Assembly: GCA_001750925.1 (NCBI GenBank)
Contig: MAXH01000141.1
Location: forward strand, 1-33,594
DNA: 33,594 nucleotides
Direction: 5' to 3'
DNA from: Desulfobulbaceae bacterium S3730MH12
GTDB lineage: Bacteria > Desulfobacterota > Desulfobulbia > Desulfobulbales > Desulfocapsaceae
Part shown: positions 8,127-31,277 of the stretch, piece after piece
How the letters are laid out: the number at the start of each line of letters is the position of its first letter
Numbering within the stretch: the stretch's first letter is position 1
Made by a program: the position numbers and the translations under genes
Notes under the pieces: generated by a model
Databases searched by the model: none
Seen by the model: only the letters and a program-made list of their open reading frames with translations
Told to the model about the DNA's origin: nothing

Positions 8127-10205
8127 ATGTTTAATAAAGTTGAAGCTGAAATAGATGGAAAAACGATTTCCATCGAAACCGGTAAAATTGCCAAACAGGC
8201 ATCAGGTTCCGTTGTGATCAGGTGTGGAGACACTGTAGTGCTTGTTACAGCTGTAGGTGCAAAAGAGAGTAAACCTGAACTCGGTTTTTTGCCTCTTACA
8301 ATTGAATATCAAGAAAAACTCGCCTCAGTGGGCAGGATACCAGGGAATTATTTCAGGCGGGAAATAGGTCGGCCCAGTGATAATGAAGTGCTGACCTGCC
8401 GCATCACCGATCGTCCTCTTCGGCCACTATTCCCGGACGGATATTGTTCTGAAACACAGGTTATCGCTACCGTTCTTTCTGCAGATCAGGAAAATTTACC
8501 GGATATTCTTTCCTTGACCGGAGCATCCTGTGCTTTGACTCTATCTGATGTGCCGTTTAACGGTCCGGTAGCCGGTGGACGTGTGGGGTGCATCGATGGA
8601 AAGTACGTTCTGAACCCAACTGTTTCAGAATTGAAGAAGTCCTCAATGGATATTGTTGTTGCCTGTACTCGTCAGGCGGTTGTAATGGTTGAAGGTAAGG
8701 CGGATGAGTTGAGTGAAGACGAAGTGCTTTCCGGTATATTCTTTGCTTTTGAGCAGTTGCAGCCATTGATCGATTTGCAGGAGGAGCTGCAGAGATCAGT
8801 AGGTAAACAAAAACGTGAGGTCGAAGCTCCTGTTGTTGACGAGGAACTTCTGGAAGAGATTCGTAAAGTAGCTGCGTCAGGTATGGAAAAAGTCTTTAAC
8901 ACTTCTGATAAAATTGAACGTGGAAAGGTTTATGATGAGCTGAAAGCTTCTGTCCTTGATGAGTTGGATGAAACCGGCGACCGGACAAGCAGTATCAAAG
9001 ATCTCCTGTCATCATATAAAAAATCATTTATGCGGAATAAAATCGCCGAGAGTGAAATTAGGATTGGCGGGCGTAAATTTGATGAAATTCGTTCCATTTC
9101 CTGTGAAGCTGAGTATCTACCTCGAACCCATGGTTCTGCTCTCTTTACCCGAGGAGAGACACAGGCTCTGGTTACTGCTACCCTGGGAAGTGAACGCGAT
9201 AAGCAGCGTGTAGAAACTTTAAATGGTGAGGAGTTAAGAAGGTTCATGCTTCACTATAACTTTCCTCCTTATTGTGTTGGAGAGGCGCGCTTTCTCAGAG
9301 GTCCATCCCGGCGTGATATTGGTCATGGCACTCTGGCTGCACGTGGGCTGGAAGCTGTGTTGCCAACAGAGGAGGAGTTCCCTTATTCTATCAGGGTGGT
9401 TTCTGAGATCCTTGAATCTAACGGTTCATCCTCCATGGCAACGGTCTGCGGCGGGAGTATGGCTATGATGGATGCCGGTGTACCGATAAAACGGCCTGTT
9501 TCCGGTATTGCCATGGGACTGATCAAAGAAGGTGAGAAGATTGTTATTTTATCAGATATTCTAGGCGATGAAGATCATCTGGGAGATATGGACTTTAAAG
9601 TGGTTGGTACTTGTGATGGAATAACATCACTGCAAATGGACATTAAAATTGATGGTGTTGATCGCGAAATTATGGGTAATGCACTTTCCCAGGCAAGAGA
9701 GGGGCGCAAACATATCCTCTCTGAAATGGAAAAAGGGATCGCCAAAGCTCGTGATGGGGTTGTTGACCACGCTCCGAAGTATATTGTTCACAAGATCAGC
9801 CAGGATAAGATACGCGATATCATAGGACCAGGAGGAAAAATCATCAAAGAATTGTCTGCCGAATTTGATGCTAAAATTGAGGTGGATGATTCCGGACTGG
9901 TAAAAATGTTTGCCTTAAATGGTGATCTTGCTGATGCTCTTGTTGAAAAGGTAAAAGCTATTACCGCAGAGGCTGAAGTTGGTGGAGTCTATAAAGGTAC
10001 TGTAAAGACAATTAAAGATTTTGGTGCCTTTGTGGAAATTCTTCCGGGTACGGATGGCCTCGTTCATATTTCTGAACTTGCCCATGAAAGAGTTGGTAAA
10101 GTCACCGATGTGGTGAGTGAAGGTGATGTCATGGAGGTCAAGGTGCTTGATGTTGACAACCGCGGTCGCATCCGTTTGAGTCGTAAGGCTTTGCTTGAAA
10201 AATAA
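8127..10205 (+). CDS. pnp: polyribonucleotide nucleotidyltransferase (PNPase)
   Basis: PNPase is a trimeric phosphate-dependent 3'-to-5' exoribonuclease and component of RNA degradosomes. The 692 residues comprise two RNase PH domains (about 1-210 and 300-540, with FFRREIGRPSDNEVLTCR in the first and FPPYCVGEARFLRGPSRRD in the second). Between them is an all-helical linker. They are followed by a KH domain with the IIGPGGK loop around residue 566 and a C-terminal S1 domain (about 620-690, containing VGGVYKGTVKTIKDFGAFVEI). All domains are intact. ATG 8127 has GGAG about 6 bases upstream. The gene is preceded by a terminator and a long hairpin, and followed by its own terminator. Confidence 0.98.
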   Translation: MFNKVEAEIDGKTISIETGKIAKQASGSVVIRCGDTVVLVTAVGAKESKPELGFLPLTIEYQEKLASVGRIPGNYFRREIGRPSDNEVLTCRITDRPLRPLFPDGYCSETQVIATVLSADQENLPDILSLTGASCALTLSDVPFNGPVAGGRVGCIDGKYVLNPTVSELKKSSMDIVVACTRQAVVMVEGKADELSEDEVLSGIFFAFEQLQPLIDLQEELQRSVGKQKREVEAPVVDEELLEEIRKVAASGMEKVFNTSDKIERGKVYDELKASVLDELDETGDRTSSIKDLLSSYKKSFMRNKIAESEIRIGGRKFDEIRSISCEAEYLPRTHGSALFTRGETQALVTATLGSERDKQRVETLNGEELRRFMLHYNFPPYCVGEARFLRGPSRRDIGHGTLAARGLEAVLPTEEEFPYSIRVVSEILESNGSSSMATVCGGSMAMMDAGVPIKRPVSGIAMGLIKEGEKIVILSDILGDEDHLGDMDFKVVGTCDGITSLQMDIKIDGVDREIMGNALSQAREGRKHILSEMEKGIAKARDGVVDHAPKYIVHKISQDKIRDIIGPGGKIIKELSAEFDAKIEVDDSGLVKMFALNGDLADALVEKVKAITAEAEVGGVYKGTVKTIKDFGAFVEILPGTDGLVHISELAHERVGKVTDVVSEGDVMEVKVLDVDNRGRIRLSRKALLEK

Positions 10206-21973: not shown

Positions 21974-22477
21974 TCACATGTTGAGAATGGATTTCATCAG
22001 TTTATAAGTAAAACCCCACAGGTAGTAGTCTTCAAGGGGGAAAGCAGGGAAGAGCTGGTCGGGGAGAAGTTCAACTTCCCTGTGGTACTTTTTCTTTTGA
22101 AAATTTTCAGAGTTGAGCCAGCATACGCTTTGGACTTCTCTGGGATTGAGTACAACGGGTGGCTGGTTCTGTAAAACGAATATAAACGGCTGCACCCATA
22201 CCGGACTTTTCATATTCCTGCCGGCAGGGGTTACCGGGAGTTTAGTTTCCATCATTTCAGGGGTGAGTATAACACCGACCTCTTCAACAGTTTCCCTGAT
22301 ACACGTCTTGAGCAAGCTGTTGTCTTTTTCCTCTTTTCGTCCCCCCGGGAATGAGAACTGACCGGACCATGGATCTGATGGATGGTTGGCTCTTCGGAGG
22401 ATCAAAAAACTTTCTTCCGGGGTAAGAACTTTGATTATGGCGACGGCGGCAGTAGCTATCTGTGGTGGCATTAGCAT
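21974..22477 (-). CDS. NUDIX hydrolase, possibly CoA pyrophosphatase
   Basis: The 167 residues contain a Nudix box starting at Gly46: GGRKEEKD, then RETVEEVGV (61-69). The REUxEExGU core is intact and Asp52 sits where classical members have Glu, a substitution common in the CoA-pyrophosphatase-like branch. Upstream, LILRRANHPSDPWSGQFSFP resembles the extended motif of that branch. The predicted reaction is hydrolysis of a nucleoside diphosphate linked to another group. CoA or a related dinucleotide is plausible but not shown. ATG 22477 and ATG 22471 are both possible starts. The genes to the right are divergent across a 255-base region in which I see no firm promoter. Confidence 0.87.
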   Translation of the reverse strand: MLMPPQIATAAVAIIKVLTPEESFLILRRANHPSDPWSGQFSFPGGRKEEKDNSLLKTCIRETVEEVGVILTPEMMETKLPVTPAGRNMKSPVWVQPFIFVLQNQPPVVLNPREVQSVCWLNSENFQKKKYHREVELLPDQLFPAFPLEDYYLWGFTYKLMKSILNM

Positions 22478-22732: not shown

Positions 22733-22951
22733 ATGACATATGATGTTGCTGCTTTTACTCCTTATTCCTTCCATACAGGTCAGAAAATCCATATTGAAGG
22801 AAGTCGGAGGCATGGAGATTGGGAGGTAGCTGCTGTTGGTGAACATACAGTCACCTTGAGATGCCCCATTTCGAAAAAAGAATTTGAATGGCCGATATTC
22901 TGCTATCTTGTTGAAGAAAAACATGATGAGATATGGCCCCGGGAGACCTGA
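22733..22951 (+). CDS. small conserved-looking protein of unknown function (72 aa)
   Basis: I do not recognise the family with certainty. From ATG 22733, with GGTGATTGG upstream, it encodes 72 residues rich in beta-strand-forming stretches: FHTGQKIHIEG, GDWEVAAVGEHTVTLRCPI and EFEWPIFCYLVEE. The composition looks like a real small globular SH3- or OB-like protein, not a random frame. It has no signal peptide or TM segment. The next frame, an NRDE-family remnant, begins six bases after its stop, so the two were probably once part of a common transcript. Confidence 0.6.
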   Translation: MTYDVAAFTPYSFHTGQKIHIEGSRRHGDWEVAAVGEHTVTLRCPISKKEFEWPIFCYLVEEKHDEIWPRET

Positions 22952-22957
22952 AAATAA

Positions 22958-23068
22958 ATGTGTCTTCTCTTTTTATCCTATAAAACTACTCCAGGGTATA
23001 AACTGGTGGTTGCTGCCAACCGTGATGAGTTTTTTCAAAAGAGTAGTTCCACCAACCTGTGCTTATAA
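22958..23068 (+). pseudogene. truncated N terminus of an NRDE/TANGO2-family protein
   Basis: A 36-codon frame begins MCLLFLSYK and continues through KLVVAANRDEFF, the diagnostic N terminus of NRDE (TANGO2-like, formerly DUF833) proteins, including the Cys2 after Met1 and the NRDE motif at residues 21-24. Intact family members are about 250 residues or longer. Here the similarity stops a few residues after NRDEFF, and the frame ends at TAA 23066-23068. The 3' end of the opposite-strand RND gene begins at 23077, so there is no room for the remainder in any frame. It was too short for routine ORF listing. GGGAG lies 12 bases upstream. Confidence 0.8.
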
Positions 23069-23076
23069 GGGTGAAT

Positions 23077-26000
23077 TTAATACTGGTGCTTTTTCAGGCT
23101 GTAATAGAGCACAGGTACAGCCATTCGACTGACCAGCAAGGAGGCGATCTCACCAAACATAAGTGAGATGGCAAGTCCCTGAAAAATCGGATCTGCCAGA
23201 ATAACAGAGGCTCCGATAACTACCGCAAGAGCAGTAAGCAGCATTGGCCGAAAGCGAATTGCCCCGGCATCCACCACCGCTTTAGACAAAGGATACCCCT
23301 CTTTGATACGCAGTTCGATAAAGTCGATAAGAATAATAGAGTTACGTACGACGATGCCGGCACCTGCCATAAAACCGATCATCGAGGTGGCCGTAAAAAA
23401 GGCACCAAATCCCCAGTGAGCCGGCAGGATACCGATAAGCGAGAAGGGGATGGCTGCCATGACTACCAGCGGCGTAAGGTAGTTTTTGAACCAGCCAACC
23501 ATAAGCATATAGATAAGGATCATCACAACACAGAAGGCCAGGCCGAGATCACGAAAAACCTCCAGGGTTATATGCCATTCTCCATCCCATTTCATTGAAG
23601 GTTCAGCTTCCGAGAAGGGCTGGTTGAGGTTGTATATTTTTACCCGTTCTTCTCTACCGCCAAAGTTGCGACCATCGAGTTCGGCCAGTTTTTTATTCAT
23701 CTCCAGAATGGCATAAACCGGGCTTTCCACCAGATCCGCAACATCTGCAGTGACATAGATAACCGGCTTGAGATTTTTTCTGTAGATAGGTTGTTCTACT
23801 ATCTGTTCTGAAACATGTACAAGTTCTCGTAAGGGGACGAGGGGGGCTCCGGGGGTTGTTTCTGACCGGAGTGAAATGTTGAGAAGTGTTTCAACTCTTG
23901 CCCTATATTGAGGAGGCAGCTGAAGAACGATATTGATACTCTCTTTATCTAGAGGCTGGTGATAGAGATCGAGAGTAAGTCCCTTAACTGCTGTTGTAAT
24001 TGCTCTGGTAACCTGCTGCTCTGAGATACCGTTTAAAGCAGCTTTTTCTTTGTCTACGGTTATAATTTTACGATTCCTTTCTGTCTCCTGGAACCAGTCT
24101 ATGTCAACCACCCCTGTGGTGGAGGCGAGTATTTCTTTCACCTCTCTGGCAAGCTTGACCCTGGCTTCATTGGTAGGGCCATATATTTCGGCAACAATGG
24201 TTTGCAGTACCGGTGGGCCAGGCGGCACTTCGGCTACTGCAACGGTTGCGCCATATTTTTTCGCAACTTCGGCAATTGCGGGCCTGACTCTTTTAGCAAT
24301 ATCATGACTTTGCAGACTACGTTCGGATTTGGGCAGCAGGTTTACCTGGATATCTGCAACAGTTGGTCCCTGACGCATAAAGTAGTGACGGACAAGGCCG
24401 TTGAAGTTATAGGGAGAGGCTGTTCCTGTATAAATCTGGTAATTAACGACTGCTGGATCCTCGCTGATCACATCGGCCATTTCGGAGGCAACATGACTTG
24501 TCTGTTCAAGAGTGGAACCTTCAGGCATATTGAGGATTACCTGGAATTCGCTTTTATTGTCAAAGGGCAGCATTTTCACTTTGACCATCCCCAGGTATAC
24601 CATTGAGCAAGAGGCGAGCAGCATGGCGGTAATGACAATGTAAAACCCGGTTCGCCATACCGCATGAGTCAGCAAAGGATCCATAATCTTGTGATAGATT
24701 CGGGTAAACCAATCGTCCGGGGCTGTCTCTTCACCGTGTGAAGTATCACCGATTTCCACTTTTTTTAGAATATGGGTTGCCGCCCAGGGGGTTATGGTAA
24801 AGGCGATAATAAGAGAAAACACCATAGCAGCGGATGAGCCGATAGGGATAGGGCGCATATAGGGGCCCATCAACCCCCCGACAAAAGCCATGGGTAATAT
24901 TGCGGCTATCACAGCCCAGGTTGCAAGAATGGTTGGGTTGCCCACTTCCTCTACAGCTTCTATGGCCACTTCACTCATAGATCTGCCGCGATTCATCGGT
25001 AATCGAAGATGGCGGACAATGTTTTCAACCACCACGATGGCATCATCGACCAGAATTCCGATAGAGAAAATCAGGGCAAAGAGAGTAATACGGTTGAGGG
25101 TATAGCCATAAAGGTAAAAAACAAGCAGGGTGAGTGCCAAGGTTGACGGGATAGCTAGCATAACGATGATCGACTCACGCCAGCCCAGGAAGAAGAGAAT
25201 GAGTAGGGCAACCCCGAAAACAGCAATACCCATATGGAAAAGGAGTTCATTTGACTTTTCTGCGGCTGTTTCACCATAGTTCCGGGTAATGGTTATTTCC
25301 AGGTCTGCGGGAATCAATGTTCCCTTTAAACTCTCCAGCCGTTCTTCCACATCATGTACAACCGATACTGCATTGGCTCCCGGTCTTTTTGCAATAGAGA
25401 GCGTAACAGCAGCTTCGCGACTCTTGTTTTCAGGTTCGCCGTAAAGCACATAGTTTGAAGGCTCTTCCGGACCATCGGTGATGGTTGCCACATCGTTGAG
25501 ATAGACCGGATTTCCACCATAAACACCGACCACTACTCTGCCGATTTCACCAGAATTTTCAAGAAATGTGCCGGTTTGCAGGAGAATTTCCTGGTTCAGT
25601 GATTTGAGATTTCCTGAATGCACCTGGCTGTTAACTTGTTGAATATGGGGGGCAAGTTCATCCAGGGTCAGGTTGCGTGAGGCAAGAAGCAACGGATCAA
25701 AATTAATGGTGAGTTGTCTCTTCGTCCCACCAATAAGCTTGGTTTCCGCAACGTCACTGATGTTGTTGATGGAGTCATCGACCTGGGCTGCTAATCGTCT
25801 CAGGGTGTAATGGTCGTAATTGTCACCATGGAAGGTGAGTGCCATAATAGGCACATCATCAATGGTGTGGGGCTTTATGAGCGGCTTCTGGACACTCCTG
25901 GGCATTCTGTCAAAATTTGTGGCGAGTTTCTGGTTAAGCCTGACGATGGATGTTTCAAGGCTTTCTCCGACAAAGAACCGTACTACAAGCAGACTCTGAC

Positions 26001-26292
26001 CCTGCATGGAAGTGGAATATATATATTCTACTCCCGGTAGTTCGTAGAGCAGTTTTTCCATAGGGATAGAAAGCCGTTCTTCCACTTCTTTTGGAGAGGC
26101 GCCGGGCATGGAAACCATGACATCGATCATCGGCACTTTGATTTGTGGTTCCTCTTCACGGGGAAGCATTACGATGGCCAGATATCCCAGCAGCAGAGAG
26201 GCGATAATACCGAGAGGTGTTAATTTCGATGCAATAAAGGCGGAGGCTAGGCGTCCTGCAAAACCCATTCTGTTATTACTGTTTGATTTCAT
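23077..26292 (-). CDS. RND efflux pump inner-membrane transporter, HAE1/AcrB-like
   Basis: The 1071-residue protein has the duplicated RND architecture. There is an N-terminal TM helix (about 22-42), a large periplasmic loop with GASPKEVEERLSIPMEKLL and LPGVEYIYSTSMQG, and a TM bundle (about 345-510). A second TM helix (about 560-580) and second periplasmic loop follow, and a final TM bundle from about 900. TM4 carries the proton-relay pair Asp416-Asp417 in GILVDDAIVVVENIV. Substrate is unknown; the HAE1-type loops indicate drug, bile or hydrophobic-compound export and not heavy metals. It is the last gene of the operon, starting 22 bases after the adaptor stop. The C terminus ends next to an NRDE gene remnant. 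Confidence 0.94.
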   Translation of the reverse strand: MKSNSNNRMGFAGRLASAFIASKLTPLGIIASLLLGYLAIVMLPREEEPQIKVPMIDVMVSMPGASPKEVEERLSIPMEKLLYELPGVEYIYSTSMQGQSLLVVRFFVGESLETSIVRLNQKLATNFDRMPRSVQKPLIKPHTIDDVPIMALTFHGDNYDHYTLRRLAAQVDDSINNISDVAETKLIGGTKRQLTINFDPLLLASRNLTLDELAPHIQQVNSQVHSGNLKSLNQEILLQTGTFLENSGEIGRVVVGVYGGNPVYLNDVATITDGPEEPSNYVLYGEPENKSREAAVTLSIAKRPGANAVSVVHDVEERLESLKGTLIPADLEITITRNYGETAAEKSNELLFHMGIAVFGVALLILFFLGWRESIIVMLAIPSTLALTLLVFYLYGYTLNRITLFALIFSIGILVDDAIVVVENIVRHLRLPMNRGRSMSEVAIEAVEEVGNPTILATWAVIAAILPMAFVGGLMGPYMRPIPIGSSAAMVFSLIIAFTITPWAATHILKKVEIGDTSHGEETAPDDWFTRIYHKIMDPLLTHAVWRTGFYIVITAMLLASCSMVYLGMVKVKMLPFDNKSEFQVILNMPEGSTLEQTSHVASEMADVISEDPAVVNYQIYTGTASPYNFNGLVRHYFMRQGPTVADIQVNLLPKSERSLQSHDIAKRVRPAIAEVAKKYGATVAVAEVPPGPPVLQTIVAEIYGPTNEARVKLAREVKEILASTTGVVDIDWFQETERNRKIITVDKEKAALNGISEQQVTRAITTAVKGLTLDLYHQPLDKESINIVLQLPPQYRARVETLLNISLRSETTPGAPLVPLRELVHVSEQIVEQPIYRKNLKPVIYVTADVADLVESPVYAILEMNKKLAELDGRNFGGREERVKIYNLNQPFSEAEPSMKWDGEWHITLEVFRDLGLAFCVVMILIYMLMVGWFKNYLTPLVVMAAIPFSLIGILPAHWGFGAFFTATSMIGFMAGAGIVVRNSIILIDFIELRIKEGYPLSKAVVDAGAIRFRPMLLTALAVVIGASVILADPIFQGLAISLMFGEIASLLVSRMAVPVLYYSLKKHQY

Positions 26293-26314: not shown

Positions 26315-27355
26315 CTATTTCTGGATGACTATCGGCTGACCGTCGATGAGGGTGGTGTTATTGGAGATAATGACAGTCTCATTCTCCTGTAGACCGCTTA
26401 ATATTTCAACCCTGTCTGGGTTTCTGGTCCCTGTTCGGACGAGGCGCAGCTTGGCCTTACCGTCTGTTTCTACAAAAACTCTCTCCATCTGACCAAAAGT
26501 ACTGAGTGCAGAAGCAGGAACGGTAAGTGTTTCTGCAGGAGTCATAGCTAGTGTTACCCTGGCAAACTGGCCTGATCTGAGTTGCTTGTTTGGAGGAATT
26601 TTAAGTTTTATGGGGGCAGTTCGTGAGGATGGATCAGCGGTGGGGGCAACTTCAGCTACCTTGCCTTGTATGCTCAGGTTGGCAGAAGGGATGAAGATGG
26701 AAAGGGTATCACCTTTATTAATCTGCAGGATCATTGCCTCCGGGATATCTGTTAAAACCTGCAGATTATTCTCTTCTTCCATGTTTAGCAGCGGTTTCCC
26801 GGGGGTTGCCAAGTCACCTATATTAGCAAGTTTGCGGGTAACAATGCCGGTAAAAGGTGCTACAATTCTGGTGTATTCAAGCATTGTTGATGCTTCTCTG
26901 TGGGCAGCCCGGGCAATACGCATCTGGTCTTCCAGAGATTTAACAGTCTCTGGAGTTGCCGCCTTTTTCTTCAGGAGGTTTCTTTCTCTGGTAAGGTTTC
27001 GTTTTGCCTGTTCAAGCTGTGCTTTTGCCTGTTGCAGTTTGGCAGAAATTTCTCCCGCTTTGATTTCGAGTAAAAGGTCGCCTTTTTTGACACGGGAGCC
27101 CAGGTCAACAGGTAGGTTGATAATGTTGCCGCTGATTTTTGCAGCAATTTCAGCGTGCTCAACAGCCTGGACGGTGCCGACAACTTCAACCTGATTTTCT
27201 GCAATACTCTTTTCCACTTTTGCTGCTGTAACAGTGACTGCAGGAAGATTTTCTGCCTGTTGTTTATGATCGGTTGCATCATTTTTGCAACCGCCAAGGA
27301 TGATAGCGGTCAAAATTATAAAAAACGAAAGCCCTGCTAATTTATACCACTTCAT
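26315..27355 (-). CDS. RND efflux periplasmic adaptor (membrane fusion) lipoprotein
   Basis: The 346-residue HlyD/AcrA-type adaptor joins the RND pump to the outer-membrane channel. It has a lipoprotein signal with lipobox LGGC and Cys23, then the first lipoyl half (VEVVGTVQAVEHAEIAAKIS, LGSRVKKGDLLLEI), an alpha-helical hairpin (about 100-155), and the second lipoyl half (RIVAPFTGIVTRKLANIGDL). A beta-barrel (LRSGQFARVTLAM) and membrane-proximal domain follow. Its ATG overlaps the stop of the TolC-like gene by one base (TAATG), indicating translational coupling, and the pump gene follows 22 bases later. Confidence 0.93.
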   Translation of the reverse strand: MKWYKLAGLSFFIILTAIILGGCKNDATDHKQQAENLPAVTVTAAKVEKSIAENQVEVVGTVQAVEHAEIAAKISGNIINLPVDLGSRVKKGDLLLEIKAGEISAKLQQAKAQLEQAKRNLTRERNLLKKKAATPETVKSLEDQMRIARAAHREASTMLEYTRIVAPFTGIVTRKLANIGDLATPGKPLLNMEEENNLQVLTDIPEAMILQINKGDTLSIFIPSANLSIQGKVAEVAPTADPSSRTAPIKLKIPPNKQLRSGQFARVTLAMTPAETLTVPASALSTFGQMERVFVETDGKAKLRLVRTGTRNPDRVEILSGLQENETVIISNNTTLIDGQPIVIQK

Positions 27356-28722
27356 TATTGAAGCTCCTCTCTTGTCTTCTCTGTGTTAGGGAATTGCGGT
27401 AACCCTGCTGCTCTGCGCAGGCTGGCAATCGCTACCTGATATCTAGCTCTGGCTGCAAGCTGTCTTGCGTGTGCATCTGATAATCGCAGCTCAAAGTCTA
27501 TAAGATCTGAAGCCAGAATCACACCTTCCTTGAATCTGACTCTGCTGAGACGTGTCCCTTCCTCGGCAACTGTGACCATCTTCTCTGTTACACTCAATCT
27601 TTTCTCCGCTTGCTGATAGTTAAGCTCTGCCTGTTGGATTTCAAGATTCAGGGCTAGTTCTGTTTTTTGGATGAGGCCTTGTATTCCCTGCAGTTGAGAT
27701 TTAGCCTTTACGATTTCCGATGAGGTTCTCCTGCCATTGAAAAGGTTGTAATCCATCTTTATTCCTGCCATCCATGAGTCTCCAGCTTCCTCTAATACCA
27801 TGCCTGCATCCACCTGATAGCTGGCAAAAGCATCAACCGTTGGACGCCTGCCTCCTTCTGCTTTTTTTAACAGGGCCAGGCTTGCCTGTTCCATTGCCAG
27901 CAGATGTTTTAATTCCTGGCGATTCTGGTAATTGATCGATTCAGGCAACTGTTGTACGGTTTCTTTCGTATCACTCAGGACTACTTCTCCGTCACGAAGG
28001 CCAAGGAGGTTTAAAAAGCTTCGTTTCGTCAATTCCAGGTTATGTTGGCTTTGAATCAGATCTTCACTGGCTCGTGCCTGCTGGAGTTCCAGGTTAAGCA
28101 AATCTCCCCGGAGGAGGTCGCCGGCATCGTATCTGGCTCTGCCAACATCCAGGGCGACAGTGATCGCATCCAGAGAGGCTAGGCGAACCTTGACCATTTC
28201 TTCAGCCTGAACAATTGCCTGGAAGGTTTTTATAACCTCAAATCCAAGGCGCTGATGAACCGCAATAAGATCCGATTTTGACATTTCTGTCGTAGCTAAG
28301 GCGGCCTCGATTCCAGCCTGATCCCGACCGCCATTGTAGAGGCGATATGCGATGAGAGCCTTGAGGTTGAGGTTATCTGTTCTTCCGGGGTCGTTAAAGT
28401 CTATACTGTTATCAAAAGCACCCTGGTTGAGAATATTGCCAAAAGAGTACATCGGTGTGTTGGTCTGTGCATATTCAGCAGAAAGGTTAATCAGGGGATA
28501 GTCAGCTGCTTTTGCCATTTCGGCTGTTGCCTGAGCTTCTTCAATACGTTTTTGAGCGATGAAACTGTCGGGATTACCGGAGATTGCAAATGCAACTGCA
28601 TTTTCGGCAGTCCAAACCTGTGGGATATCAAGCTGCCTTGATTCTATATGGTTTTGAGCGCTGGATGTTCCGGCCAATAAAGAAAAACAGCAAAGGACTG
28701 CAGTAAGTAGAGTCGGTTTCAT
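27355..28722 (-). CDS. TolC-family outer-membrane efflux channel
   Basis: This is the outer-membrane component of the tripartite pump. After a signal peptide (MKPTLLTAVLCCFSLLAGTS, predicted cleavage after SSA), the protein shows the duplicated OEP architecture: AVAFAISGNPDSFIAQKRIEEA, a beta-strand segment with GRTDNLNLKALIAYRLYNGG, long coiled helices, a second half with KMDYNLFNGRR, and the late RVRFKEGVILASDLIDFELRL. ATG 28722 gives 455 residues and is chosen for the clean signal peptide. ATG 28737 and TTG 28749 are in-frame alternatives. It is the first gene of the efflux operon, with the promoter expected in the 306-base region upstream. Confidence 0.9.
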   Translation of the reverse strand: MKPTLLTAVLCCFSLLAGTSSAQNHIESRQLDIPQVWTAENAVAFAISGNPDSFIAQKRIEEAQATAEMAKAADYPLINLSAEYAQTNTPMYSFGNILNQGAFDNSIDFNDPGRTDNLNLKALIAYRLYNGGRDQAGIEAALATTEMSKSDLIAVHQRLGFEVIKTFQAIVQAEEMVKVRLASLDAITVALDVGRARYDAGDLLRGDLLNLELQQARASEDLIQSQHNLELTKRSFLNLLGLRDGEVVLSDTKETVQQLPESINYQNRQELKHLLAMEQASLALLKKAEGGRRPTVDAFASYQVDAGMVLEEAGDSWMAGIKMDYNLFNGRRTSSEIVKAKSQLQGIQGLIQKTELALNLEIQQAELNYQQAEKRLSVTEKMVTVAEEGTRLSRVRFKEGVILASDLIDFELRLSDAHARQLAARARYQVAIASLRRAAGLPQFPNTEKTREELQ

Positions 28723-29028
28723 AGAGTTTTCTACCATTCCTTTTTGCAACGGTTGCGAGTTTGTCTGTATTTAATGGTCTGGTTAAGTAGGTAAAGCTTC
28801 TGCTTTCAGTTGTCAAAGAAAAATGCATGCCACTGTGTGGCAGATCTTTTTTTCGTACTATATAAGAAGCAAATTCAGACTATCTTTGAACTTTTGGCAG
28901 GTCAAGTTAATAATCGGTTTTTTTGACTGGAATTGTGGTTGGTCTATGAATATTATTCGGATGAAACCGGGTGAGTTATAGAAACAGAGATTTGATTAAT
29001 GGGGGGAATTGGTTTTAAGTGGGGCAGG
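28723..29028 (-). promoter_or_regulatory. promoter/operator region of the efflux operon
   Basis: This 306-base non-coding stretch separates the hybrid kinase stop from the TolC-like gene. It holds a perfect 15-base palindrome, TGCCAC-TGT-GTGGCA (28828-28842). On the minus strand there is an exact TTGACA (28816 to 28811), but the base pairs at the usual -10 distance fit poorly. A TATAGT on the minus strand (28862 to 28857) lies just upstream of the palindrome. The palindrome is a candidate repressor or activator site. No regulator gene is next to it. Confidence 0.4.
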
Positions 29029-31113
29029 CTAAATATCCCTGTTCAGGGTTTTGAGAATCTTGACCAGCGCCTTCACGTCTACCGGCTTGGAAAGGTAGTA
29101 ATCCATACCGGCTTCCATACATTTTTCCCTGTCCCCGGCCATGGCATATGCTGTGAGCGCAATTATCGGAATTCTTTTAACTTCTTCATATTTTTTTGAT
29201 GACCGAATTATCCTGGTTGTCTCCAAGCCATCGAGTTCAGGCATTTGTACGTCCATCAAGATAACGTCAAAATCCATGGATTTCATGAGCTCCATAGCAC
29301 TGTAGCCATCAGATGATACCATTGTTTTGTGACCGAGTTTGGTCAGTATTGCCTTCAGAATCTGTTGATTAATTGGTTCATCTTCAACAATGAGGGTTGA
29401 CAACCTTCGCATGGGGCTAGTTAACAAGGGGGTAATTCTTTCCGGTTGCTGTATGAAATCAGTGCTGTCACATTTTTCTGTGAGAATATCGAAAGTGAAG
29501 GTGGTACCCTGAGGTTCATTTTGTCTCAGTGAAACATTTCCTCCCATCTGGTTGACAAGCTGTTTCACGATACTCAAACCCAACCCGGTTCCTTTACGTT
29601 TGCGGCGACTTTTGTCTTCTACCTGGGTGAATGGCTCGAACAGTTCGTTAATGGCATTCTCAGGAATACCTATGCCGGTATCTGAAACAGTCCAGCTTAT
29701 TCTCAAATACTTTCCGTTAATTTCTTCCAGCACATGGATAGAGATGGAAATTTCTCCATAATCAGTAAATTTAACTGCGTTTCCTATCAGGTTGAAAAGA
29801 ATTTGTTTGAGTCTTGCCTGGTCTGCAACAAAAATATCCGGTACCTCGGGGCTTATTGAGTAATTGAGTTTAACCTTTTGAGGATCCAGACTATTTTTAA
29901 AAGAGGTTATCAGGGGATCCATAACGGCGGTTATTTCAAAAGGTTCTGGGTTTATCTGTACCTTGCCGGACTCTATTTTAGCGTTGTCGAGGATGTCGTT
30001 TATTATGGTCAGAAGACTTTCTCCTGAAGCTGAAGCTGTCTTGACGTATTCTTCCTGTTCATCATTGAGCTGGGTCATCTGCAGTAGCTGAAGCATCCCG
30101 ATAACTCCGTTCATCGGTGTCCGTACCTCATGACTCATATTGGCGAGAAACTTCGACTTTGCCTTACTGGCAGCAAAAGCTTTCTCTTTTGCTGCCTCAA
30201 GTTCAGTCATCATCTGTTTTCTTGTTGTGATATTCCTTGTAACACCAATAATACCAGTACAATGGTCGGAGTTTTCAATAAGACGGGAGGCAACACTTTC
30301 GACCCAGATGATCTCATTATCAGAGGTTGCGATTGGTGTTTCCCAGTAGTGAGATTTGTCTTCCGGTAGAGAAAACACCTCTTTGGAGTCTTTAATGAAT
30401 GGTGAGGAGAGAATGACTTCTCTGTGGAGAACATCAGTGGCATTTTCCTGGGGAAAACCTGTGAGATTCGTAAAGGAAGGACTAATAAAGAGTGGTTGAA
30501 AATTACTGTCAGTTGTCCAGATAACATCGTGTACATTGTCAGCCAGCAACCGATAAAGATGTTCACTTTCTTTTAGTGCCTCCTCCACTGTTTTTCTTTC
30601 AGATATATCCCTGGCAATGAACGTAAAGAGATCTTCGTTGGAAATAGTCAAACGAAGAGCGCTTATTTCAACTGGGAATCTTGAGCCGTCTTTTCGCCTG
30701 TACACTGTTTCATATGTAAAGTTGCCTTCTGCTTTAAGGTGAATAAGCATATCCTTGATATAGCCAAAGTCATCGTCATCACATAAGTCAAAAGGTGTCA
30801 TACGAAGAAGCTCATCACGGGAGTAGCCAAATTGTTTACAGGCGACATTGTTTACATCAGAAAAGTAACCATAGTATGGATTTTCTGTATCGAGAGTGAT
30901 GACAAACATGGCATCATTTGCATAATTGACAAGTTTCCTGTATTTATTCCTGCTCTGTTCAAGTTCGACATTTTCCATCCCGCATTTTGAGAGATCCTGA
31001 ACAGAAGAAAATACTGTTCCCGACTGGCGGATGACGAATTGTTCAAGTTCCGCTATACGTTCCCGTGCCAGTTTCAGCTGCGATTGGAGTTCTGTTATTT
31101 CTTCTGCGGTCAT
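29029..31113 (-). CDS. PAS-PAS hybrid sensor histidine kinase with C-terminal receiver
   Basis: The 694-residue protein from ATG 31113 (a TTG at 31122 is an alternative) has no predicted TM segment, so it should sense in the cytoplasm. Domains in order are a short N-terminal coiled coil (about 1-40) and PAS1 (about 55-170, with VFVITL-like core and RRKDGSRFPVEIS). PAS2 (about 183-295) follows, then HisKA with His328 in MSHEVRTPMNG. Next is HATPase_c with N-box LFNLIGNAVKFTD, DTGIGIP and GTGLGLSIVKQL, and then a receiver with IVEDEP, phospho-acceptor Asp621 in LMDVQMPELDG and the SKPVD loop. There is no HPt or output domain in the protein. A partner protein must complete the relay and is not adjacent. 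Confidence 0.93.
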   Translation of the reverse strand: MTAEEITELQSQLKLARERIAELEQFVIRQSGTVFSSVQDLSKCGMENVELEQSRNKYRKLVNYANDAMFVITLDTENPYYGYFSDVNNVACKQFGYSRDELLRMTPFDLCDDDDFGYIKDMLIHLKAEGNFTYETVYRRKDGSRFPVEISALRLTISNEDLFTFIARDISERKTVEEALKESEHLYRLLADNVHDVIWTTDSNFQPLFISPSFTNLTGFPQENATDVLHREVILSSPFIKDSKEVFSLPEDKSHYWETPIATSDNEIIWVESVASRLIENSDHCTGIIGVTRNITTRKQMMTELEAAKEKAFAASKAKSKFLANMSHEVRTPMNGVIGMLQLLQMTQLNDEQEEYVKTASASGESLLTIINDILDNAKIESGKVQINPEPFEITAVMDPLITSFKNSLDPQKVKLNYSISPEVPDIFVADQARLKQILFNLIGNAVKFTDYGEISISIHVLEEINGKYLRISWTVSDTGIGIPENAINELFEPFTQVEDKSRRKRKGTGLGLSIVKQLVNQMGGNVSLRQNEPQGTTFTFDILTEKCDSTDFIQQPERITPLLTSPMRRLSTLIVEDEPINQQILKAILTKLGHKTMVSSDGYSAMELMKSMDFDVILMDVQMPELDGLETTRIIRSSKKYEEVKRIPIIALTAYAMAGDREKCMEAGMDYYLSKPVDVKALVKILKTLNRDI

Positions 31114-31277
31114 AAATGACAATTTCTTTAAAACTTTATATGTTTATATAAAAGTCATGTACACCAGGAGACTTTGTATCAACCTTTCATATTGATGTTA
31201 CTGTATTTGGTAAGATAGAGTCAAATTTGGCAGAAAAAGATTACCTTTATGATCAACAAATATCAGGAAACGACTTA

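What the first reader, a model, noticed from the sequence alone, without database searches (positions are those of the whole stretch)
22958..23076. NRDE/TANGO2-family gene truncated at the end of the RND efflux operon
A 36-codon frame preserves the diagnostic N terminus (Cys2 and NRDE at 21-24) of a family normally about 250 residues long, then stops. The similarity ends within roughly 40 bases of the RND stop codon. This marks a likely recombination junction at which the efflux operon arrived, or at which the intervening DNA was deleted. The other end of the operon (28723-29028) shows no NRDE C-terminal sequence that I can detect.
Basis: partly seen in the sequence, partly recalled or inferred. 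Interest (0 to 1): 0.6.

Follow-up and report, generated by a model that had tools for sequence, protein, structure and literature searches.

The report
Deletion remnant of a TANGO2-family gene
A bacterium from the Desulfobulbaceae group has lost about nine tenths of one ordinary, probably dispensable gene (NRDE/TANGO2 family) through a single small deletion, leaving only its first 27 codons, while the neighbouring efflux-pump genes are exactly where its relatives have them.

Summary
Window 22958-23047 encodes the first 30 positions of Pfam TANGO2/NRDE (PF05742; E = 1.6e-8, over the cut-off), and the frame stops after 36 codons. No other part of the gene is found in this incomplete (82%) genome. 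Four of the six other genomes of the genus carry an intact 254-267-aa NRDE gene in the same place, just after the same 72-aa gene and convergent with the same RND pump gene. Nine genomes of a second genus show the same order. So the operon was there before the truncation. Against the closest relative (G005) the change is a clean ~680-bp deletion: codons 28-254 and the first base of the stop codon are gone, and the sequence rejoins at window ~23040/23041, ~40 bp before the RND stop. The breakpoints share no useful repeat, so illegitimate recombination or replication slippage is the likeliest cause and a k-mer misassembly is unlikely. Reads were not available. In two sister genomes both the 72-aa and NRDE genes are absent here, so the locus is probably lost repeatedly. 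This is an ordinary pseudogene.

The parts
22958..23040 (+). 5' remnant of the NRDE/TANGO2-family gene (codons 1-27 and two bases of codon 28)
   Evidence: PF05742 positions 1-30; colinear with intact genes of G005 and G002
23041..23068 (+). read-through tail of the 36-codon frame: last two bases of the old stop codon and former 3' spacer of the NRDE gene
   Evidence: blastn of the right half aligns GAGTAGTTCC... to the G005 sequence that starts inside the NRDE stop codon
23040..23041 (.). deletion junction (uncertain by about 3 bases); about 680 bp present in G005 are missing here
   Evidence: blastn blocks end at 23039 and restart at 23041, opposite G005 contig positions 8599 and 7917; base-level comparison
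22733..22951 (+). intact 72-aa small protein gene (p72), upstream partner of NRDE in relatives
   Evidence: 69 of 93 family genomes have it; directly upstream of NRDE in genera g1, g6 and g10
23077..26292 (-). RND pump gene, intact, at its ancestral position
   Evidence: same place in all seven congeners and nine genomes of genus g10
26315..28749 (-). membrane fusion protein and TolC-like genes of the same operon, intact
   Evidence: Pfam hits HlyD_D23 and OEP; colinear in relatives
21974..22477 (-). Nudix gene, the conserved neighbour on the other side
   Evidence: PF00293; same place in all congeners

Best explanation
The 36-codon frame is a pseudogene: the 5' stump of a normal NRDE/TANGO2-family gene that stood between p72 and the convergent RND operon. 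One deletion of about 680 bp, between codon 28 and the stop codon, removed 227 of about 254 codons in this lineage after it split from its nearest relatives (shown by comparison). The flanking genes were not touched (shown). The breakpoints show little or no microhomology (0-2 bp), so illegitimate end joining or slippage is the likely route (inferred). The loss was tolerated because the gene is dispensable: sister genomes lack it, and p72 as well (inferred). If a peptide is still made it lacks nearly the whole fold and is expected to do nothing (inferred).
For: PF05742 match to positions 1-30 only, over the cut-off. Intact NRDE genes of 254-267 aa at the same place in four congeners. Colinear blastn blocks on both sides of a single ~680-bp gap against G005, 93-94% identity. 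RND operon at the same place in all congeners and in nine genomes of genus g10. No second or displaced NRDE piece in the genome. No shared word over 6 bp around the two breakpoints in G005. G004 and G006 have neither p72 nor NRDE between Nudix and RND, and group together with 100/99 support in the RND tree. Deletion of the homolog htpA in Shewanella oneidensis is viable, with about 15% less cytochrome c (PMC10470608).
Against: The genome is an incomplete assembly (81.7% complete, 319 contigs), so an assembly error or strain mixture cannot be fully excluded without reads, and a second intact copy could lie in the missing part. The first 26 codons have diverged no faster than in intact relatives (one lineage-specific base change of 78), which fits a recent deletion but would also fit a retained peptide; the stretch is too short to tell.
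Confidence: 0.93

Rival explanations
1. The RND efflux operon was inserted into an NRDE gene and carried away its 3' part.
For: The truncation lies within 40 bp of the operon's last stop codon.
Against: The same operon stands next to an intact NRDE gene in four congeners and in nine genomes of another genus; the sequence from 23041 through the operon and into the kinase gene, to 30237, is colinear with G005; no NRDE 3' part is found in the genome.
Confidence: 0.01
2. Assembly artefact: the organism has an intact gene and the assembler skipped 680 bp, for instance because of mixed strains.
For: It is a fragmented assembly in 319 contigs; two related strains, one with and one without the deletion, could be mixed.
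Against: The junction is inside a 33.6-kb contig and not at a contig end; in the relative the two breakpoints share no word longer than 6 bp, whereas a k-mer assembler needs a long shared word to make a false join; the flanks carry lineage-specific substitutions right up to the junction.
Confidence: 0.05
3. The 36-codon frame is a functional small protein (for example a regulator, or a binding peptide that keeps the Cys2/NRDE motif).
For: Start codon, Cys2 and NRDE are intact and only one of 78 bases changed in this lineage.
Against: No relative has such a short frame; the others in the genus are full length or lack the gene. The nine C-terminal residues are read-through of old spacer. Nearly the whole fold is gone, including the region of the Tyr needed for haem binding in the Shewanella homolog (Tyr108, PMC10470608).
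Confidence: 0.02

Closest known systems
NRDE/TANGO2 family, PF05742; studied bacterial member HtpA (SO0126) of Shewanella oneidensis
   Same: First 30 profile positions with Cys2 and NRDE; intact orthologues in congeners match positions 1-255/256 of 257.
   Different: Here about 90% of the gene is deleted, so this copy is a pseudogene and not a working member. Haem trafficking is reported for HtpA (PMC10470608); a haem-transport role for TANGO2 homologs in worm, yeast and zebrafish is disputed (PMC12782551), and acyl-CoA binding through NRDE is reported for human TANGO2 (PMC11867700).
Bacterial pseudogene formed by internal deletion
   Same: Single deletion with colinear flanks, apparently recent; the same locus is also missing in sister lineages.
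   Different: Nothing unusual, apart from the deletion ending almost exactly at the stop codon and sparing the convergent neighbour.

Membership tests
NRDE/TANGO2 family (PF05742) | Profile match above the curated cut-off | tested here: met
   35.5 bits against 22.6, but only positions 1-30 of 257
NRDE/TANGO2 family (PF05742) | Cys2 and the NRDE motif near residues 21-24 | tested here: met
   Translation
NRDE/TANGO2 family (PF05742) | Full-length domain of about 250 residues | tested here: not met
   36-codon frame; about 680 bp missing against G005. It is a remnant, not a functional member.
NRDE/TANGO2 family (PF05742) | Haem or acyl-CoA binding | not testable with these tools
   Needs protein work; nearly all of the fold is deleted
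Insertion junction of an arriving operon | Relatives have the site without the operon | tested here: not met
   All seven congeners and nine genomes of genus g10 have the pump gene at this place
Pseudogene formed by internal deletion | Intact orthologue at the same place in close relatives, colinear flanks, single gap | tested here: met

The most novel reading that the evidence does not exclude
The stump with Cys2 and NRDE is still expressed and has been kept as a new micro-peptide next to p72.
Probability: 0.02. Interest if true: 0.45.

Novelty: new member of a known kind. Interest (0 to 1): 0.1.

Why it matters
It matters little by itself: it is one recent gene loss. Its use is as a natural case of loss of a TANGO2-family gene in a group (Desulfobulbaceae in the records' names) in which several genera keep it beside a conserved 72-aa partner. 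The family's function is disputed, and the locus offers a genus with both intact and lost copies for comparing, for example, cytochrome c content or lipids.

Tried and rejected
(1) Operon arrival: rejected by gene order in relatives. (2) A displaced 3' part elsewhere in the genome: none. (3) Deletion between direct repeats: the longest shared word near the breakpoints in G005 is TATAAA, not at the breakpoints. (4) Relaxed constraint on p72 after the loss of NRDE: with three genomes, unpolarised, the G000 branch has 9 nonsynonymous against 2 synonymous changes, versus 5 against 13 in the two relatives (Fisher p = 0.008). Set against the wider family, the commonest residues at positions 39 and 59, and a common one at 35, are those of G000, so those changes belong to the relatives; the idea is not supported. 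Also, 36 genomes of the family keep p72 without a full-length NRDE gene (counted). (6) A promoter and terminator scan gave nothing clearly above shuffles that bears on the case.

Full report
What is there. A frame of 36 codons starts with ATG at 22958, six bases after the stop codon of a 72-aa gene (22733-22951), and ends with TAA at 23066-23068. It matches Pfam TANGO2 (PF05742), positions 1-30 of 257, with E = 1.6e-8 and 35.5 bits, above the curated cut-off of 22.6. The same place is the only match to that family in the whole assembly of 319 contigs, 81.7% complete. A search of the assembly with the missing part of the protein, taken from a close relative, finds nothing.

Relatives. Of the six other genomes of the genus, four (G001, G002, G003, G005) carry a full-length NRDE gene matching profile positions 1-255/256, 254-267 aa long. 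In all four it starts just after the 72-aa gene, faces the RND gene, and has the Nudix gene on the other side. The RND protein of G005 is 97% identical to that of the window, that of G002 96%.

The deletion. Against G005, the window is colinear up to 23039, then resumes at 23041 and runs on to 30237 at 94% identity (the script's positions are offset by 21499). In between, G005 has about 680 more bases. At base level the left side follows the relative's NRDE gene to codon 27-28 (...GATGAGTTTTTTCAAAAG in the window...GATGAGTTTTTGCAAAGACC in G005), and the right side picks up GAGTAGTTCC, opposite GAGTGGTTCC, which begins inside the NRDE stop codon of G005. The exact base is uncertain by about 3 because the two sequences differ near the join. 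The gap thus removes codons 28-254 and the first base of the stop codon. In the window the former 3' spacer is read for a further nine codons. Around the two breakpoints in G005 the longest shared word within 45 bases either side is TATAAA, and it does not sit at the breakpoints. I infer illegitimate recombination or slippage; this step is not shown.

Arrival of the operon. The pump gene is at this place in all seven genomes of the genus. In two genomes of genus g6 the Nudix-p72-NRDE order exists without RND in the stretch taken. So the operon's junction with this locus, whenever it formed, predates the truncation.

How often is the locus lost? G004 and G006 have Nudix and RND adjacent with about 120-300 bp between them and neither p72 nor NRDE. 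They form a supported pair in the RND tree (100/99), apart from the trio G000, G002, G005 (96/99). So there were at least two separate losses among seven genomes, unless the pair never had the genes. Across the family, 34 of 93 genomes have a strong NRDE match (E below 1e-30) and 69 have p72; p72 and full-length NRDE are direct neighbours in 20 (counted).

Age. In the first 26 codons the window lineage has one private base change of 78, so the deletion is recent or the sample is too short to show decay. A hint that p72 had relaxed after the loss disappeared when the changes were set against the wider family.

Function of what was lost. The bacterial homolog HtpA of Shewanella oneidensis binds haem and helps cytochrome c maturation; its deletion lowers cytochrome c by about 15% and is viable, and Tyr108 is needed for haem binding (PMC10470608). 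A haem-transport role for worm, yeast and zebrafish homologs is disputed (PMC12782551), and human TANGO2 is reported to bind acyl-CoA through NRDE (PMC11867700). Whichever is right, the stump lacks nearly all of the fold.

Limits. The assembly is a draft. No reads were available, and the collections that could show a second strain with the same junction could not be scanned. The absence of a k-mer repeat at the breakpoints makes a false join unlikely. Verdict: observation confirmed; deletion, not operon arrival; an ordinary pseudogene.

Noticed in passing
29029-31122: The hybrid histidine kinase upstream of the efflux operon has two PAS domains here. In relatives G005 and G001 the stretch equivalent to residues ~178-297 (the second PAS) is missing, while G002, G003, G004 and G006 have it, which suggests repeated loss or gain of one PAS domain.
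   Followed up: partly
L072 (G001), RND gene: In the single-contig genome G001 the orthologous RND gene is split into two overlapping frames (residues 1-967 and 957-1071), so it seems frameshifted.
   Followed up: no
22733-22951: The 72-aa protein has no Pfam family above cut-off yet is present in 69 of 93 genomes of the family, with a conserved core (GQKIRIE..RR.GDWE....V.LRCP.S..EFEW..FCY). It is a conserved small protein of unknown function, often upstream of NRDE.
   Followed up: partly
L039 (G004), between Nudix and RND: The 302-bp gap holds a long inverted repeat (CACCACAGAGAGCACAGAGGACACAGAG / CTCTGTGCTCTCTGTGTCCTCTGTGGT), visible by eye; it may be a small repeat element at the place where p72 and NRDE are absent.
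   Followed up: no
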